From a virus, in the IMG/VR virus record IMGVR_UViG_3300025701_000030, positions 1 through 35,259 of that record: a stretch of 35,259 nt of DNA; one strand, given 5' to 3'. Positions 889 to 35,259 of the stretch are shown piece after piece (within the stretch, counting starts at the first letter, position 1; each line of letters begins with the position of its first letter). Under the pieces are notes generated by a model. It was not told the DNA's origin. It made no database searches and saw only the letters and a list, made by a program, of their open reading frames with translations. A program made the position numbers and the translations under genes.

Positions 889-908
889 AACTCTCGCAGG
901 CTCGAGTT
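889..908 (+). promoter_or_regulatory. Conserved stem-loop, copy 1
   Basis: AACTC (889-893) pairs with GAGTT (904-908) around the loop TCGCAGGCTC. The core CTCTCGCAGGCTCGAG at 891-906 is identical to copies at 1695-1710 and 8648-8663. The stem differs from the other copies, yet pairing is kept. It lies 42 bases before the ATG of the next gene. It may be an RNA regulatory element or a hairpin promoter. Confidence 0.7.
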
Positions 909-2718: not shown

Positions 2719-2929
2719 AGTTAAGATGGCAACTGTCAATGAGTTGTTAGCCCTTCCTAAACAGACTAGCCATGTCCGATACAAAAGCGAGAATGATCGC
2801 ATGTGGCCCCTCCTAGTCCCAGAGGATATACGTTCAGATGCAGGTTCAGCTAAGGCATCTAAAAACCGTATGTTCTGCAAGATAAATACCTTCACTAAAC
2901 ACTATGAGGAGCACTCATTATGTCTCTAG
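2696..2929 (+). CDS. Hypothetical protein, 77 residues
   Basis: AGGAG near 2682 gives a ribosome binding site for the ATG at 2696; a later ATG at 2726 lacks one. The middle (ELLALPKQTSHVRYKSENDRMWPLL) is polar with few hydrophobic stretches, and no known motif is seen. Its end overlaps the start of the exported ClpP-fold gene by ten bases, so the two are likely translated together. Function unknown. Confidence 0.6.
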   Translation: MFNQNQNKVKMATVNELLALPKQTSHVRYKSENDRMWPLLVPEDIRSDAGSAKASKNRMFCKINTFTKHYEEHSLCL

Positions 2930-3567
2930 ATAAAAAAGCTAAAGTGTTGACACAAGCTACAATAACTATAATATTGCTGATGTCATTCATAACATATGTA
3001 AATAATGCCGATGCAGCTACCATGCGTATATCTGATAAAGGCACAACCCTGTACTATGACGGTGCTGTTCAATGGGGTGACTACCATAGGCTAAAAGATC
3101 TGATTAATAAGAATCCTAAACTCCTATACATATCTCTTAACTCAAGAGGTGGGTCAGCTCAAGAGGGACGTAACATAGGTATCCTACTAAGAAAGTCACT
3201 ACTGACTACTGTAGTCCAAGAGAATGCCATATGTGCATCAGCTTGTACTTCTATGTTCCTAGGTGGTGTAGTGCGTATAGTTGAGTCATCTGCAAGAATG
3301 ATGTACCATCCGCCATACATGGAGGAATATCCTCAAGGTTGGACAATGGAGCATATAGCGTTAAGTGCTCAAAACCAAACAGCAATCGAGATAGCACACT
3401 CAGTGGCACTTGTTGAGCTTAACAAAGAGTTTCAAGTTGTTAAGTTCTTGTTGCACAATGTGTATAACTTGAAAACAAACAGTGGGATACTCTATACTGC
3501 ATCCCCTCAAGAACTTCTAGATTCTGGTATTGCTACTCGAGTTTACACAAAAACCAAAGGTGAGTAA
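2920..3567 (+). CDS. Exported ClpP-fold serine protease-like protein
   Basis: This 215-residue protein starts with a lysine-rich end and one hydrophobic helix (about residues 11-27), then an A-D-A site near residue 32, so a cleaved signal peptide is likely and it would act in the periplasm. The rest matches the ClpP/crotonase fold: LNSRGGSAQEG at 73-83 (oxyanion-type glycines), CASAC with the candidate nucleophile Ser107, and MMYHPP with His130, the order seen in ClpP. It belongs with the secreted ClpP-like proteins rather than cytoplasmic ClpP. It lies just before the AAA+ gene, but a periplasmic protein cannot dock with it. The substrate is unknown. Confidence 0.7.
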   Translation: MSLDKKAKVLTQATITIILLMSFITYVNNADAATMRISDKGTTLYYDGAVQWGDYHRLKDLINKNPKLLYISLNSRGGSAQEGRNIGILLRKSLLTTVVQENAICASACTSMFLGGVVRIVESSARMMYHPPYMEEYPQGWTMEHIALSAQNQTAIEIAHSVALVELNKEFQVVKFLLHNVYNLKTNSGILYTASPQELLDSGIATRVYTKTKGE

Positions 3568-3569
3568 TC

Positions 3570-4619
3570 ATGGCTGATAAAAACACTAAATATATGTTCG
3601 CAGACACTTGTGAACCACTGTTCTATATGCTTGATAGAGACAGTGATACAATATCTTGGGTATTCATTATGGATTCCAATGAAGCTGTATCTCTCTCAGA
3701 CAGCGATATGGATGATCTTATCCAGAAAGGTAAAGTTGTACAAGAGACAGAAGAAGCATTGTCAAGTTTCTTCACAGATGCAATCAATGGCAAAGGTGGT
3801 GAAAATGCTATCAACATGTTCGGTTTCTTAGAAATACCTGCTCCTACTACCTCTGATAAGAAAGAAGAAAACACAGAGGATGAGGGTGAAGTGATCAAAG
3901 TGCCTGATACATACCGACCAGAGCTATGTAATACCTCTATCTCACCAGAAGTACTCGTTAAAAAGCTAAAGATTGCAGAGTCAAAGACAGAACGTCCTGA
4001 TTGTATCTCTATCTTATTCGAAGGTGTTCCTGGAAGTGGTAAGACACTAGCTGCTGCATACATAGGTAAGGAACTCGGTAAGACTGTTAAGTCATACAGA
4101 TTGAGTGAACTACAGAACAAGTATGTTGGTGAGTCTGAAAAGTTGATTGCTGAAGCATTTGATAAAGCAGAAGAGAATGGTCACATATTACACATTGATG
4201 AGATTGATTCACTCAGCCGTTCACGTAACGATGAGTCTAAAGGTCATGAGATCAAGATGTGCAACACACTGTTACAATGCCTCGATAGGTTCAAGGGTAT
4301 CTTCATAGCTACCACTAACTATCGTGATGAGTTAGACTCAGCAGTCAAACGTCGGTTCTTACTCAAGCAAGAGTTCAAGAACTGCACTTCAGAACAAGCT
4401 AATGAACTCTCTAAGTTGTTCTTCGGTAAGCGCATAGCCCCTATGAACCTACCTAACGAGACATTCGCCCCTGCAGACTTCAATATCGTCAAGAACTCCT
4501 TCTTGTTCGAAGAAGATAAGACAATCAACCGCAAGTTCATCCTCAAGCGTCTCACAGAAGAAGCAAAGGATCGTAACGGTAAAGACTTAGTTAATAAGAA
4601 AAAGGTAGGATTCCTATGA
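3570..4619 (+). CDS. Classical AAA+ ATPase (unfoldase-like)
   Basis: This 349-residue protein has an acidic N-terminal region (1-140) and one AAA+ module. Seen motifs are Walker A GVPGSGKT (152-159), a pore-loop-like KYVGESEK starting at residue 184, Walker B HIDEIDSL with D210 and E211, sensor 1 in FIATTNY, and arginine fingers R261 and R262. The pattern is that of FtsH/Vps4-like classical AAA proteins, which thread substrates through a hexamer. The C-terminus reads KKVGFL; V-G-F resembles the IGF/IGL tripeptide by which ClpX and ClpA dock on ClpP, although there it sits in an internal loop. With clpP two genes downstream, a phage protease complex is a fair inference. The end overlaps the next gene by four bases. 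Confidence 0.85.
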   Translation: MADKNTKYMFADTCEPLFYMLDRDSDTISWVFIMDSNEAVSLSDSDMDDLIQKGKVVQETEEALSSFFTDAINGKGGENAINMFGFLEIPAPTTSDKKEENTEDEGEVIKVPDTYRPELCNTSISPEVLVKKLKIAESKTERPDCISILFEGVPGSGKTLAAAYIGKELGKTVKSYRLSELQNKYVGESEKLIAEAFDKAEENGHILHIDEIDSLSRSRNDESKGHEIKMCNTLLQCLDRFKGIFIATTNYRDELDSAVKRRFLLKQEFKNCTSEQANELSKLFFGKRIAPMNLPNETFAPADFNIVKNSFLFEEDKTINRKFILKRLTEEAKDRNGKDLVNKKKVGFL

Positions 4620-4795
4620 GTGATCTAAGAAAACAATCTCAAGCAAGTATTACAGAGTTATCAAAACTGGCTGACTACTGTTCCATGATGTCTTGTAAGA
4701 CAGGTGAGAGTAAATACATGACAGCTTATCACGAAGTAGCAGATGCAATGGTCAGTATTAAAGAGTTCATTAAGAGTGAGGAAGAAAACCTATGA
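4616..4795 (+). CDS. 59-residue helical protein between ATPase and clpP
   Basis: Both ends overlap neighbours by ATGA, so it is translated in step with the AAA+ ATPase and ClpP. The product is helical and acidic at the end (VADAMVSIKEFIKSEEENL), with cysteines at 22 and 27. No family is recognised. Its place between an unfoldase and its likely peptidase suits a substrate adaptor or assembly factor, but that is inference from position alone. Confidence 0.65.
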   Translation: MSDLRKQSQASITELSKLADYCSMMSCKTGESKYMTAYHEVADAMVSIKEFIKSEEENL

Positions 4796-5370
4796 TACCT
4801 ATGATTGTAGAGAAAGAAGGTTCAAGAGAACGCTCATGGGATGTGTACAGTCGGTTACTAAAGGACCGTATCATCTTCCTTAACACGGACTTCAATGATG
4901 ACATGGCTTCTGCAATCTGTGCTCAGCTTATCTTGTTAGAGGCTGAAGACTCAAAGGCAGATATCACTATGTATATCAACAGTCCTGGAGGTTCTGTTAG
5001 CTCAGGCATGGCTATCTATGATACAATGCAGTACATCAAACCAGATGTGTCTACAGTTATCATGGGCCAAGCATGCTCCATGGGTTCCTTCACAGCTAAT
5101 GCTGGTGCAGCAGGTAAACGATTCATGTTACCAAATGCACGTCACATGGTTCACCAAGTGTCAGCAGGCACTAGTGGTCAATGCTCAGACATGGAAATTG
5201 CAGTTAAAGAGGCTCGTCGTATTAACGATGATCTGGCTAAAATCTATGTCAAACACAACAGTAAAGGTAAGACACTGTCAGACTTCCGAAAGGTAATGGA
5301 CCGTGATAGTTGGATGACATCACATGAAGCATTGAAGTTCGGTCTTATTGACAAAATCATTAAACGATAA
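4792..5370 (+). CDS. clpP: ATP-dependent Clp protease proteolytic subunit
   Basis: This 192-residue protein aligns with bacterial ClpP over its whole length. The triad is in place: Ser96 in GQACSMGSF, His121 in PNARHMVHQ and Asp172 in DRDSWMT, with Ser-His spacing identical to Escherichia coli ClpP. YINSPGGSVSSGMAIYDTMQ and the C-terminal GLIDKIIK are family hallmarks. It would form a 14-subunit chamber that needs a AAA+ partner, either host ClpX/ClpA or the phage ATPase two genes upstream. No long propeptide is seen. The start shares ATGA with the gene before. A phage-encoded active ClpP is uncommon; it may redirect host proteolysis or process phage proteins. Confidence 0.93.
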   Translation: MIPMIVEKEGSRERSWDVYSRLLKDRIIFLNTDFNDDMASAICAQLILLEAEDSKADITMYINSPGGSVSSGMAIYDTMQYIKPDVSTVIMGQACSMGSFTANAGAAGKRFMLPNARHMVHQVSAGTSGQCSDMEIAVKEARRINDDLAKIYVKHNSKGKTLSDFRKVMDRDSWMTSHEALKFGLIDKIIKR

Positions 5371-5373
5371 ACT

Positions 5374-5507
5374 ATAACATAAGGAGGATTGCCGTTCTCT
5401 TAAGTTATATGCATTACAAGATGTAGAGGGTTGCCGCCCTCGGGAACAGTATGGTCTTGCCGGACCATGCTTTTCTTCAAGTACATTCCAAGAGTGTGCT
5501 TCAAGAA
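5374..5507 (+). ncRNA. Four-hairpin structured element, TTGCCG loops
   Basis: Hairpin A pairs AGGAGGA (5382-5388) with TTCTCTT (5395-5401), extendable outward to 5374-5408. Hairpin B pairs GAGGG (5426-5430) with CCCTC (5437-5441). Hairpin C pairs ATGGTC (5451-5456) with GACCAT (5463-5468), extendable by three pairs. All three have the loop TTGCCG (5389-5394, 5431-5436, 5457-5462). Hairpin C is followed by TTTT. Hairpin D pairs TTCTT and AAGTACA with TGTGCTT and AAGAA (5473-5507) around a C-C mismatch. The element fills the gap after clpP; no gene is seen in it. Whether it is a stable RNA, a terminator cluster or a leader is not known. Confidence 0.6.
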
Positions 5508-5529
5508 GAGTTCAACTAGAGGATACATT

Positions 5530-5946
5530 ATGAAACGCTATCAGGTATACAAAAACCTACACAAAAACTGCTGGTCTATCAGAGATGCTAAAACCAAACA
5601 TGTTGTTGGTCATGCTGATACTGTTCAGTTGTTCCAAGTGAAATATAAAGTAAGTAAAGCAGGTCGTGAGAGAGTCTTAAGAGACCAGCGTAAGAGCGTC
5701 CATGCAGTAGTTGAGGGTGAGATTGTATCAGTCTCAGGCTTCACTTCCTTCAAAGGTAGGTCATTCCAATCTCATGGAGTGTACCCTAACTTATACTCCG
5801 ATAGAGTATACCTAGAAGAGCTCACATACAACCCCTACAGGTTCACTCACTTCGTCAAGAAGATGTCTGAGAACTTAGTACTGAATAGTCGTATGGCCAC
5901 ACTTGACCGCCATGGCAAGCTAACTGGAGGATTCCAAAGCATATGA
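5530..5946 (+). CDS. Conserved-type phage protein, 138 residues
   Basis: The ATG at 5530 follows AGAGGAT (5518-5524); a TTG-start extension to 5431 would run through the hairpins and is rejected. The protein is basic, opening with MKRYQVYKNLHKNCWSIRD and with GRERVLRDQRKSVHAVVEGE in the middle. From memory, small proteins of this pattern occur in many lytic phages without known function; I could not check this. The second half is aromatic and beta-like (GVYPNLYSDRVYLEELTYNP). Its stop overlaps the next start. Confidence 0.75.
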   Translation: MKRYQVYKNLHKNCWSIRDAKTKHVVGHADTVQLFQVKYKVSKAGRERVLRDQRKSVHAVVEGEIVSVSGFTSFKGRSFQSHGVYPNLYSDRVYLEELTYNPYRFTHFVKKMSENLVLNSRMATLDRHGKLTGGFQSI

Positions 5947-6544: not shown

Positions 6545-6796
6545 ATGAGTAACATAATTGAAGAAACTGTGCATGTTGAGCTACGTGACTTAACCTTTGA
6601 GGTAGAAGTTGCTTACCTTCCTAGTAATAATGCAACAGACCCACGTGATAACTTCGAGGGTGCGATTATAAGTTATGACCTCATTGAGGTTTACTATGAC
6701 CAAGGCTATGCAGAGTTTCCACCAGACACTGTTAATTGGTTAGCTGAGCAACATGGTGATGAAGTTGTAGAAGAACTTAAGGAAATATTACTATGA
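6545..6796 (+). CDS. Acidic protein, 83 residues
   Basis: A strong ribosome binding site, AGGAGGG, lies just before the ATG. The product is acidic, with an N-terminal strand pattern (TVHVELRDLTFEVEVAYLP) and an acidic C-terminal helix (EVVEELKEILL). It overlaps the next gene by four bases. No family is recognised. Confidence 0.7.
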   Translation: MSNIIEETVHVELRDLTFEVEVAYLPSNNATDPRDNFEGAIISYDLIEVYYDQGYAEFPPDTVNWLAEQHGDEVVEELKEILL

Positions 6797-7677: not shown

Positions 7678-8388
7678 ATGAAAGGTTTTATTCTATATGA
7701 AGGCCCCTCAATGTTCGATAAGAAACCCATAGTAGCCATCGTGACCTTCAGCTCAACCAATGAGAAGACAGGGAACATGGCACAACTATGGATACTTCCT
7801 AAAGACGTAGCACCCCATGAAGCAGTCAAGTCCGGGAAGGACCAATCTGTCTGTGGTGGTTGCCAGCATCGACACAATCTAGGAGGTGCCTGTTATGTTC
7901 TACCATTCCAGGGCCCTCTATCTGTATGGCGTTCATACAAGCGTGGATTGTACCCTAAATCGAACCCTAAGGCTCTCCTAAAGCTTATGCTTAAGGAACT
8001 AAGGCTAGGTGCTTATGGAGACCCCGCAATGCTCCCAGAAGACCACCTACGAGCTGTCAAATCAGTAGCCCGTGGTACAACAGGTTACTCTCACCAGTGG
8101 AAGAATAAGAGACTCAAACATGCTATGCAGTATTGCCAAGGGTCCGTAGATTCACTAGAGGAAGCTAAACAGTTCAAAGAAATGTATCCTAATGGTCATT
8201 ACTTCCGTGTTACTGATGATATCTCAGATATACAAGAAGATGAAATACAATGCCTCGCAGATACCAAAGGCTTAACATGCCAACAGTGCATGTTATGTGA
8301 CGGCACTAAACAGAATATCGTCATAGAAGTACATGGCGCTAAGAAGTCTCGGTTCACCTCAGATATTCAGATCAAGGAAGTTGTTTAA
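7678..8388 (+). CDS. Conserved-type phage protein with cysteine clusters, 236 residues
   Basis: It starts two bases after the previous stop. The N-terminus (LYEGPSMFDKKPIVAIVTFS) and the segment APHEAVKSGKDQSVCGGCQH followed by GGACYV form a pattern I associate with a widespread phage family of unknown function. GPLSVWRSYKRGLYP follows. Cysteines in C-G-G-C and later in TCQQCMLCDG suggest at least one zinc site. The final third (IVIEVHGAKKSRFTSDIQ) is basic. A nucleic-acid role is likely from the charge and cysteines, but no catalytic motif is clear. The stop overlaps the next start. Confidence 0.75.
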   Translation: MKGFILYEGPSMFDKKPIVAIVTFSSTNEKTGNMAQLWILPKDVAPHEAVKSGKDQSVCGGCQHRHNLGGACYVLPFQGPLSVWRSYKRGLYPKSNPKALLKLMLKELRLGAYGDPAMLPEDHLRAVKSVARGTTGYSHQWKNKRLKHAMQYCQGSVDSLEEAKQFKEMYPNGHYFRVTDDISDIQEDEIQCLADTKGLTCQQCMLCDGTKQNIVIEVHGAKKSRFTSDIQIKEVV

Positions 8389-8580: not shown

Positions 8581-8644
8581 ATTATACGCCCCAGGAATAC
8601 GCTTCGGCAATCACTTGGTCCCCTTAAGAAACCCTAAAGACACT

Positions 8645-8666
8645 AACCTCTCGCAGGCTCGAGGTT
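8645..8666 (+). promoter_or_regulatory. Conserved stem-loop, copy 3
   Basis: AACCTC (8645-8650) pairs perfectly with GAGGTT (8661-8666) around the same ten-base loop as copies 1 and 2. It lies 29 bases before the start of the DUF3310 gene, at the head of the replication block. Confidence 0.75.
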
Positions 8667-18453: not shown

Positions 18454-18509
18454 AAAAAAGAACCCCCTAGAGATTACCATTACGGTAGCCTTTAGGGGGT
18501 ATATTTTTT
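18454..18509 (+). terminator. Bidirectional terminator between converging arms
   Basis: ACCCCCTA (18462-18469) pairs with TAGGGGGT (18493-18500), with a smaller TACC/GGTA hairpin inside. An A-run lies to its left and a T-run (ATATTTTTTTT) to its right, so it can stop transcripts from both sides. It fills the gap between the stops of the converging arms. Confidence 0.93.
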
Positions 18510-18926
18510 TTATTTCTTACCGACTACCTTGAGGTAATCTTGAGCCTTCTTCATGAGCTCTTCTTTAGTTAGTTCGTCATAGGACATTTCAACTACTGTA
18601 CTTTCAACACTAGCTTTCTTAGCTGTCTCATAGGGAGCAAGCTTAGTTGCTAGGTCTTCAGCCTTATCATAGTCACCCTCTTTCAGGGCCTGCATCATGC
18701 TTAAGCGTAACACTTCCACTGCTAAGGGTGCATCATTGGCTACCTCAGAGTAGTCCTTGTATCCCTTAGTGAACTCTTTGAGTGCTTCACGCTCTGCCTT
18801 CTGGCGTCTACGTGTTTCCAATCCTTTCTCTCGAGCAGCATTGGATGTCTCTGAAGTAAACTGTGGAGCAGCGTGTGCCTTAAGTGCTGCAATACTGTTA
18901 GGGTTTTTCCCTTGGTTACCTGCCAT
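18510..18926 (-). CDS. Last late gene, 138-residue basic-N-terminus protein
   Basis: AGGAGG precedes the ATG at 18926. The N-terminus (MAGNQGKNPNSIAALKAHA, then AREKGLETRRRQKAER) is basic, and the rest helical and acidic (SYDELTKEELMKKAQDYL). The combination of a glycine/asparagine-rich start, a basic helix and the segment ALKEGDYDKAEDLATKLAPY recalls some phage terminase small-subunit-like proteins, but the match is loose and the gene is far from where terminases are expected. It could equally be a small virion protein. It is transcribed last in the late arm, directly after the polymerase-like gene. Confidence 0.7.
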   Translation of the reverse strand: MAGNQGKNPNSIAALKAHAAPQFTSETSNAAREKGLETRRRQKAEREALKEFTKGYKDYSEVANDAPLAVEVLRLSMMQALKEGDYDKAEDLATKLAPYETAKKASVESTVVEMSYDELTKEELMKKAQDYLKVVGKK

Positions 18927-33661: not shown

Positions 33662-35259
33662 TAATTCACCTTGTAACTTCCGTATATCGTCAACGTGTCG
33701 TTTGCAGAAAAGGTAAAGTTTGAAACATTAGCCACGGCTTCACTTTGCCCCCCTTCCTCTAGTACTACCCCAACATATGCACTTCCATCTTGAAAGTAAG
33801 CATGTGGAGTTTTTGCAGAAGAAAATGAAACGCCACTTGTTGAGATTGCCGCCCTACCTCTTTCATTCGTTAAAAGTTTTGAATTAAAAGGAAGTCCGTA
33901 GATTCTTATATCTCCAGAACCCATTGAAGTAACAGTGCTGAATTGAATAAATAGCTTGAAATGAACTATATTACCCACTTTTGTGTAGTACCCTGCTTGC
34001 TTAGAGTAAGCTACATTTTGACCACTACTTGATGGAGTATAGGTGGGGGTAAACGTACCAGTCTCATAATCATCCAACTTATTAGCCGCACCAGTTCCGC
34101 CAAGATAGACACCGCCTGATAGGTATAGGTCTTTGAATTGCGATGTTGTACTGCCTAAGTCTATAGCTCCACTTCTTATCGTATTTGAACTAGGACTGTG
34201 CGGAACTATGTTGTCATAAATACCAGAACACAATAAACCTGTATCCCCAGAACCTATATACATTACGCCATAAGCACTACCAATCGACCCAACTGTTGAG
34301 CCGTCTTTGCGGAATTGTGTAATATCTCCATCATTCCCAATTCTATTGTGGACGCATACAGTATCATTACTAACTTCATTTTTTATCAGTCCGTTACTGT
34401 AGACAACCAAACCTGAATTACCTGTAGCACTATTAGTACGCCCAACCAACAGATTACCAGAGCTGTCTATACGTGCTCGTTCTGTGCCACCAGTGTAAAA
34501 CGCTCTAATCGATGACCCGTAATTACGCTCCATTACAACGCCATTATAAGTAATATCATGATATTGTGATGATTGACCGCCTACTCCGTACTTATACTGC
34601 CAAGTATTAAATCCATTATGCACAGAAATACCATCATCATAAGGACTAGACAATGTCATAGATAAACGCTTACTAGGACTAGCTGTACCAATCCCAACAT
34701 TACCGCTAGAGTTTATGCGCATAGCTTCTGAGCCGTCCATTCGGAAAGTCATGACGCTTCCACCTACAGCATTATTTTCATCCACGGATATAACTAGATT
34801 ACCGTATCGACCATCTAATGATGATAGACCAGAACCACTTGACATTTGTATCTTTGTGTCTGTAGAGCCAGTGCCATTTAGGTGCAGTTTAGCACTAGGA
34901 CTAGCTGTACCAATCCCCACGTTGCCGCTAGAGTCTATGCGCATGCGTTCTGTGTATGTAGATGAGCCAGTTCTTGCGCCAATAACGTACTCAGCACTTG
35001 AAGCAGAGCCACCGCCCACTACACCTGTATACATAACACCTGTGCCTGAAGTACCTGCCACAGTATATCGGGTCATAGCAGTAGCACCAACAGTAACGTC
35101 TGTGTTGCTAACGACTTCTATTGCTGGTGGTAGTGCTGTAGATGAATAAACAGTTGAATCTGAATCGGCTAGTGTAAGGGTAGCGTATGGACTCGTACCA
35201 ATCCCCAAACTCTCAGCACTAGCATCCCATACGAATTTTGCAGTCGTTCCAGTGTCTTC
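33661..35259 (-). CDS. Tail fibre protein, C-terminal part (5' end outside window)
   Basis: The frame is open to the window edge, with no start needed inside; about 532 residues are visible. They carry repeats of the form MRIDSSGNVGIGTASPSAKL (three or more variants), typical of phage fibres with triple-stranded or beta-helix shafts. The end (YETGTFTPTYTPSSSGQN, GYYTKVGNIVHFKLFI, GDIRIYGLPF) is a C-terminal domain frequent in marine phage fibres, which probably forms the receptor-binding tip. The repeats cause near-identical DNA stretches at 34672-34722 and 34894-34944. It is the first late gene in the window. Confidence 0.88.
   Translation of the reverse strand, partial: EDTGTTAKFVWDASAESLGIGTSPYATLTLADSDSTVYSSTALPPAIEVVSNTDVTVGATAMTRYTVAGTSGTGVMYTGVVGGGSASSAEYVIGARTGSSTYTERMRIDSSGNVGIGTASPSAKLHLNGTGSTDTKIQMSSGSGLSSLDGRYGNLVISVDENNAVGGSVMTFRMDGSEAMRINSSGNVGIGTASPSKRLSMTLSSPYDDGISVHNGFNTWQYKYGVGGQSSQYHDITYNGVVMERNYGSSIRAFYTGGTERARIDSSGNLLVGRTNSATGNSGLVVYSNGLIKNEVSNDTVCVHNRIGNDGDITQFRKDGSTVGSIGSAYGVMYIGSGDTGLLCSGIYDNIVPHSPSSNTIRSGAIDLGSTTSQFKDLYLSGGVYLGGTGAANKLDDYETGTFTPTYTPSSSGQNVAYSKQAGYYTKVGNIVHFKLFIQFSTVTSMGSGDIRIYGLPFNSKLLTNERGRAAISTSGVSFSSAKTPHAYFQDGSAYVGVVLEEGGQSEAVANVSNFTFSANDTLTIYGSYKVN
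34672..34722 (-). repeat. Tail fibre internal direct repeat, copy A
   Basis: This 51-base stretch matches 34894-34944 at all but four positions. It encodes one NSSGNVGIGTASPSK-type unit of the fibre shaft. Such repeats permit recombination between fibre genes. Confidence 0.8.
34894..34944 (-). repeat. Tail fibre internal direct repeat, copy B
   Basis: Second copy of the 51-base repeat at 34672-34722, in the same direction, 222 bases away, and encoding DSSGNVGIGTASPSA. A weaker third unit (GIGTSPYATL) is coded at the right edge. Confidence 0.8.

What the first reader, a model, noticed from the sequence alone, without database searches (positions are those of the whole stretch)
5374..5507. Array of hairpins sharing the loop TTGCCG
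Three consecutive hairpins have different stems but the identical six-base loop TTGCCG (5389-5394, 5431-5436, 5457-5462), and a fourth 12-pair hairpin follows. The stems have no common sequence, so the repeat is not a simple duplication; selection on loop identity is implied. It may bind a protein or a small RNA, act as tandem terminator, or be a stable non-coding RNA. The gap lies between clpP and an unrelated gene.
Basis: seen in the sequence. Interest (0 to 1): 0.75.

Follow-up and report, generated by a model that had tools for sequence, protein, structure and literature searches.

The report
Phage RNA hairpins sharing one loop
Between two genes of a virus of bacteria lies a stretch whose RNA should fold into a packed row of hairpins, three of them ending in the same six-letter loop; the structure looks real and RNA-based, but it was found in only one virus species and its job is unknown.

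Summary
In the 159-base gap between clpP and a Phage_L5_gp82-family gene, TTGCCG caps three hairpins (loops 5389, 5431, 5457). None of 20,000 shuffles of the gap, and none of 1,000 of the window, gives three same-loop hairpins. The loop is not a generally favoured one. The fold belongs to the RNA-sense strand: -53.0 kcal/mol against -35.3 for the antisense, a difference no shuffle reached, because it relies on G-U pairs. Nearly the whole gap is paired: five hairpins and a closing helix, ending just before the next gene's ribosome site.

Corrections: hairpins 1 and 2 are not unrelated (13 of 16 bases identical, with one compensatory change); hairpin 4 has 17 pairs, not 12; a weak extra hairpin lies between 1 and 2.

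Limits: the array exists only in this phage and two near-identical contigs. Three diverged relatives that carry clpP lack it, so conservation cannot be tested. Rfam and the phage collection have no match.

Best reading: a co-transcribed intercistronic RNA whose hairpins set the fate of the clpP/gp82 transcript, the repeated loop being a multivalent site for one trans factor. Shown: structure, strand and loop repetition. Inferred: function and ligand.

The parts
4792..5370 (+). clpP-like protease gene, upstream neighbour
   Evidence: PHROG 94 (head maturation protease) E 3.6e-52 and ATP-dependent protease families; 66-70% identical homologues in G001, G004 and L286
5373..5409 (+). Hairpin 1: outer stem UAUAAC/GUUAUA, inner stem AGGAGGA/UUCUCUU, loop UUGCCG 5389-5394; carries a strong Shine-Dalgarno-like AAGGAGG with no start codon at a usual distance
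   Evidence: -9.7 kcal/mol, z -3.05; pairs
5410..5425 (+).
   Evidence: -2.4 kcal/mol
5426..5441 (+). Hairpin 2: GAGGG-UUGCCG-CCCUC, loop 5431-5436; 13 of 16 bases shared with hairpin 1
   Evidence: -9.5 kcal/mol
5444..5513 (+). Predicted 4-pair closing helix GAAC/GUUC (5444-5447 with 5510-5513) that holds hairpins 3 and 4 in a three-way junction
   Evidence: MFE and centroid; pairs
5448..5471 (+). Hairpin 3: AGUAUGGUC-UUGCCG-GACCAUGCU, loop 5457-5462, followed by UUUCUUC (terminator-like); in the full fold the outermost A-U pair is not formed
   Evidence: -13.4 kcal/mol, z -4.92; terminator-like site; its 18-mer core is found only in two near-identical contigs
5471..5509 (+). Hairpin 4: 17 pairs with one mismatch; its 5' arm contains the U-tract that follows hairpin 3
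   Evidence: -18.8 kcal/mol, z -6.30 for 5470-5514; pairs
5518..5523 (+). AGAGGA, likely ribosome-binding site of the downstream gene, outside the predicted fold
   Evidence: sequence, fold
5530..5946 (+). Downstream neighbour, 138 aa, Pfam PF25735 Phage_L5_gp82 / PHROG 586, function unknown
   Evidence: E 2.7e-27, 7.7e-29; AlphaFold2 pLDDT 86, no PDB match at E 0.001 or better

Best explanation
The gap encodes a compact, sense-strand structured RNA of about 140 nt, co-transcribed with clpP and the gp82-like gene (no promoter-like site was seen at its 5' edge). It works as an intercistronic control element: the hairpins block or punctuate the transcript (3'-end protection of the clpP part, partial termination at hairpin 3, an open ribosome site for the next gene just after hairpin 4). 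The three identical UUGCCG loops are a multivalent docking site for one trans-acting partner, most likely an RNA-binding protein of phage or host, that changes this outcome during infection. Shown here: the fold, its strand and the loop repetition. Inferred: the cis role, the existence of the partner and every step of control.
For: Three same-loop hairpins, 0 of 20000 gap shuffles and 0 of 1000 window shuffles. Stability on the RNA-sense strand only: 11 of 56 predicted pairs are G-U, and -53.0 against -35.3 kcal/mol for sense and antisense of the gap. The loop is not a generically favoured one, so loop identity between the unlike stems of hairpins 2 and 3 asks for a reason. Hairpins 1 and 2 differ by one two-sided and one one-sided pair change, both keeping the pairs. 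No promoter-like site was found on the + strand between 3571 and 7099, and the putative phage promoter motif is only at 2535 and 8566 on this half, which fits co-transcription. The fold ends 4 bases before the next gene's ribosome site.
Against: No diverged homologue of the array exists in anything searched, so there is no covariation across species: G001 has one unlike hairpin after clpP, and G004 and L286 have a 9-nt gap. Homologues of the downstream gene in 11 diverged viral loci and in 3 members of this phage group have no UUGCCG-loop hairpins upstream. No partner protein is identified; the gp82-like protein has no recognisable RNA-binding fold. No transcript data.
Confidence: 0.4

Rival explanations
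1. Plain structural barrier or weak tandem terminator: stable hairpins protect the 3' end of the clpP mRNA and partly terminate transcription at hairpin 3. The shared loop has no ligand: hairpins 1 and 2 are an old duplication and hairpin 3 has the loop by chance or through loop stability.
For: Hairpin 3 is followed by a U-tract and is picked as terminator-like; its -13.4 kcal/mol is like that of three other terminator-like hairpins of this phage (-11.5 to -18.1). Hairpins 1 and 2 share 13 of 16 bases. L014 also has one stable hairpin after clpP (-15.2 kcal/mol for 6575-6630).
Against: UUGCCG is not enriched as a loop in 2.6 Mb of other phage DNA, so loop stability is a poor reason. Hairpin 3 matching a given loop by chance costs about 1 in 4096 (arithmetic, equal base frequencies). 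Terminator-like sites are no more frequent than in shuffles.
Confidence: 0.33
2. A separate trans-acting RNA (decoy or sponge): the array is cut out or made as a discrete RNA of about 140 nt whose loops titrate a host RNA-binding protein or a host small RNA with a CGGCAA seed.
For: Compact, nearly fully paired, with a possible terminator; three copies of one loop suit titration.
Against: No promoter-like element directly upstream, and hairpin 4 plus the ribosome site follow the U-tract, which suits an mRNA leader better. The best complement in phage non-coding RNA is 8 nt at 8605 (CGGCAAUC, to hairpin 1's loop), which is within chance. The host is unknown, so host targets were not searched.
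Confidence: 0.15
3. Chance or neutral relic: leftover sequence from a module swap between clpP and the downstream gene, with no selected function.
For: Present in one phage species only; the neighbourhood after clpP differs in all 3 clpP-bearing relatives examined.
Against: Fold z -4.36 and the same-loop triple are both unmatched in shuffles; a gap of this size is unusual in a half-genome where most neighbouring genes overlap or nearly touch.
Confidence: 0.09
4. DNA-level element (cruciform, primase or single-strand initiation site, protein-binding palindromes).
For: Hairpin arrays of this size occur in single-strand replication starts of small phages (recalled, not looked up).
Against: The fold depends on G-U pairs of one strand; the other strand folds no better than shuffles (z -0.60).
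Confidence: 0.03

Closest known systems
Phage intercistronic hairpins / intrinsic terminators (for instance stable CUUCGG hairpins of T4; recalled)
   Same: Stable hairpins between genes of one transcript; hairpin 3 has a short U-tract
   Different: Loop UUGCCG is not the generic stable loop, is repeated three times on stems of which one is wholly unlike the others, and the array is nearly continuous with a predicted junction
Multi-site RNA operators and sponges with a repeated loop (for instance tandem CcsR RNAs of Rhodobacter or CsrA-titrating RNAs; recalled, not looked up)
   Same: One loop motif presented several times on stems of different sequence
   Different: Different motif; no known ligand; located inside a gene cluster of a phage
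Start-associated and extended start-associated sequences of Cluster K mycobacteriophages (PMC3203893, passages seen)
   Same: Repeat elements, some with inverted repeats, just upstream of phage gene starts
   Different: Those are dispersed copies with a conserved repeat sequence, and the authors saw little support for mRNA hairpins; here the copies are tandem, the loop is the shared part and pairing is strongly supported

Membership tests
Rfam families (release 15) | Covariance-model score at or above the gathering threshold | tested here: not met
   0 matches in the whole window; in 5300-5600 up to E 5 only a chance-level ES205 hit on the other strand, 15.3 bits against 86
Intrinsic (Rho-independent) terminator | Stable G+C-rich hairpin directly followed by a U-tract | tested here: inconclusive
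   Hairpin 3 qualifies weakly (4 G-C pairs by the scan's count, tail TTTCTTCAAG); hairpins 1, 2 and 4 have no U-tract; site count equals chance
Intrinsic (Rho-independent) terminator | Transcript 3' ends at the site | not testable with these tools
   No RNA-seq available
tRNA / tmRNA | Cloverleaf or tmRNA model match | tested here: not met
   ARAGORN 0 genes
Conserved structured ncRNA family | Homologues with compensatory changes across species | tested here: not met
   No homologue outside two near-identical contigs; 3 of 3 clpP-bearing diverged relatives examined lack the array. It is therefore not filed as a family
Multivalent RNA-binding-protein operator or sponge | Repeated loop presented on unlike stems, beyond chance | tested here: met
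   (unlike for hairpin 3 against 1 and 2; hairpins 1 and 2 are similar)
Multivalent RNA-binding-protein operator or sponge | A ligand binds the loop | not testable with these tools
   No ligand known; the fold search of the neighbouring gene product gave nothing

The most novel reading that the evidence does not exclude
A phage RNA that presents one six-base loop three times as a multivalent receptor for an unknown RNA-binding protein or small RNA of its host, either titrating it or using it to switch expression between the clpP part and the gp82-like part of an operon.
Probability: 0.3. Interest if true: 0.65.

Novelty: new variant of a known kind. Interest (0 to 1): 0.42.

Why it matters
If the shared loop is a docking site, the array is a ready-made bait: three copies on one short RNA, an easy pull-down for an RNA-binding factor in a poorly known group of phages. 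If it is only a barrier, it still shows that intergenic RNA structure in phages can turn over quickly together with gene modules, so absence from relatives does not mean absence of structure.

Tried and rejected
Rfam at gathering threshold and at E up to 5: nothing. DNA similarity of the gap to 50,697 phage records: no match. Exact 18-mer of hairpin 3: only the two near-identical contigs. Same-loop hairpin pairs were searched in the relatives and CRP-7: scattered pairs were found, many of them plain repeats; none is an array like this.

Coding explanation rejected: the in-frame extension upstream of the gp82-like gene does not resemble the N-terminal extensions of homologues; a 22-codon ORF (5451-5519) has no clear ribosome site. 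Autoregulation by the gp82-like protein was considered: the model is confident (pLDDT 86.2) but has no PDB relative, so it neither supports nor excludes this. CRISPR-repeat mimicry was considered because a paper on type I-F Cas8-HNH (PMC11480323, one passage seen) holds UUGCCG; it lies in the guide part of a laboratory crRNA, not in the repeat, and the unlike stems do not fit a repeat. Loop-to-target pairing inside the phage: best 8 nt at 8605, or 9 nt on the minus strand at 33854 inside a coding gene, judged chance. Kissing between the three loops is excluded by sequence (UUGCCG is not self-complementary). Literature searches (UUGCCG with loop; tandem hairpins and identical loop; podovirus intergenic stem-loops; phage sponge; translational operator; conserved loop; listings and starts of abstracts seen) found no description; searches on L5 gp82 gave no function (listings; PMC3203893 passages). 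A word search of two roseophage papers, PMC12629253 and PMC6918029, found none of promoter, terminator, hairpin or stem-loop. Nothing wider is claimed about the literature.

Full report
WHAT IS THERE. The window is a 35,259-base virus record (G000) with a single-subunit RNA polymerase (PHROG 414) on the + strand and long genes on the - strand from about 18.5 kb (DNA polymerase, primase-helicase and virion roles of other genes are read from matches and from the gene order). Its closest isolate in the phage collection by RNA polymerase is Roseobacter phage CRP-7 (33.9% identity); by helicase it is about equally CRP-7 and Pelagibacter phage Kolga (50%). The finding lies in the 159-base gap 5371-5529 between a clpP-like gene (4792-5370) and a 138-aa gene of the Phage_L5_gp82 family (5530-5946).

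CHECK. The triple was not reached in 1000 shuffles of the window or 20000 of the gap (3 of 20000 had two, none three). The whole gap folds better than all 1000 shuffles (z -4.36). Pairing covers 56 pairs in 150 bases, 11 of them G-U (3 of these 11 are the U-G of the loops, which the program pairs, leaving UGCC). Because of the G-U pairs the antisense strand folds no better than its shuffles (z -0.60); the sense-antisense difference of -17.7 kcal/mol was not reached by any of 1000 shuffles. This points to RNA, read in the direction of the genes. Among the 10 non-coding gaps of 45 bases or more that I tested in the + half (by my own gene table), this gap has the second strongest + strand z (-3.73 with 100 shuffles), after 18454-18510. 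Against it: a sliding scan with arbitrary 150-base frames and 30 shuffles ranks this region only 12th of 245; its frames cut the array and take in coding sequence.

ANATOMY. Hairpin 1 (5373-5409), a weak hairpin (5410-5425), hairpin 2 (5426-5441), then a predicted closing helix (5444-5447 with 5510-5513) that holds hairpin 3 (5449-5470 in the full fold) and the long hairpin 4 (5471-5509). The ribosome-binding site and start of the next gene follow at 5518 and 5530, outside the fold. Hairpins 1 and 2 differ by an A-U/G-C exchange and a G-U/G-C change, both keeping the pairing; with only two copies this is suggestive, not proof.

IS THE LOOP SPECIAL? In 273 loci (2.6 Mb, both strands, same-phage loci removed, 120 of them chosen by a TTGCCG pattern) 7 of 2259 TTGCCG have a stem of 6 or more pairs, 0.31%, rank 54 of 91 hexamers (mean 0.39%); CTTCGG, which contains the well-known stable UUCG loop, comes first with 14 of 1085 (1.29%), which shows that the test can detect a favoured loop. 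So a general preference for UUGCCG does not explain the triple.

RELATIVES. Two contigs are the same phage (99.8-99.9% identical over 8-12 kb) and carry an identical gap, which says nothing about constraint. The helicase search returned 49 loci, one of them the same phage (L103); none of the other 48 has a TTGCCG hairpin of 4 or more pairs, nor has the CRP-7 stretch L102. Of 12 related records searched for clpP, 2 have it (G001 and G004), and a further search added L286. In all three the array is missing: G004 and L286 have a 9-base gap and another small gene; L014 (record G001) has one hairpin with a different loop and then the helicase gene. In G004 and L286 the genes between clpP and the homologue of the gene at 7678 also differ from the window's. 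The array therefore seems to belong to a local module swap, and its conservation cannot be judged. The gp82-like gene has matches in 589 phage records; upstream of it in 11 diverged viral loci, in 3 relatives and in CRP-1 and CRP-125 I saw no comparable array.

MECHANISM. Shown: a sense-strand RNA fold (predicted) with a threefold loop. Inferred: co-transcription with clpP (no promoter-like site seen on the + strand between 3571 and 7099; putative phage promoter motif only at 2535 and 8566 in this half), action as an intercistronic barrier or partial terminator, and use of the repeated loop by one partner. The partner is unknown. The gp82-like protein would be the natural candidate for autoregulation; its model has no relative in the PDB, so this stays open. 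I give 0.4 to the docking-site version, 0.33 to a plain barrier without ligand, 0.15 to a separate trans-acting RNA, 0.09 to chance, 0.03 to a DNA element.

VERDICT. The structure is well supported at the RNA level by computation; the repeated loop is beyond chance; the function is open, and restriction to one phage species limits what can be inferred. New variant of a known kind (phage intercistronic structured RNA), interest 0.42.

Noticed in passing
window 891-906, 1695-1710, 8648-8663; L099 5515-5530: CTCTCGCAGGCTCGAG occurs three times in the window and once more upstream of it in the same phage, its core 45-64 bases before gene starts in the window. The flanks often extend the CTC/GAG pairing with different bases. 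The core TCGCAGGC also lies upstream of the same SSB-position gene and of the g7678 homologue in relatives (L279, L286). In L286 the pairing differs, so a sequence element such as a promoter or operator is as likely as a hairpin.
   Followed up: partly
window 2535 and 8566; relatives L108, L110, L112, L114, L123, L130, L131, L136: A T-rich tract followed by AACCGACA, often in two copies some 32-59 bases apart, is enriched and strand-biased in the relatives (ACCGACA 58 against 9 in 52 loci that overlap in part, repeats). It may be the promoter of the phage RNA polymerase.
   Followed up: partly
window 18454-18510: A very stable hairpin on both strands (z -5.7 and -5.0) between the converging + and - strand genes, perhaps a two-way terminator.
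   Followed up: no
window 2920-4619: A second, weakly ClpP-like protein with an N-terminal hydrophobic stretch and a AAA+ ATPase sit just before clpP; the ATPase/clpP pair is kept in relatives G004 and L286, the second ClpP-like gene had no match there.
   Followed up: no
L102 (Roseobacter phage CRP-7), loops at 337 and 1138: Two hairpins with the same loop TGTAATG on different stems, at or near gene boundaries of the early region, a possible parallel to the finding; two copies only, may be chance.
   Followed up: no
window 5451-5519: A 22-codon ORF overlaps hairpins 3 and 4 and stops right at the next gene's ribosome site; no clear ribosome site of its own (read).
   Followed up: no
window 5381-5387: AAGGAGG, a strong Shine-Dalgarno-like sequence, lies in the stem of hairpin 1 without a start codon at a usual distance (read).
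   Followed up: no
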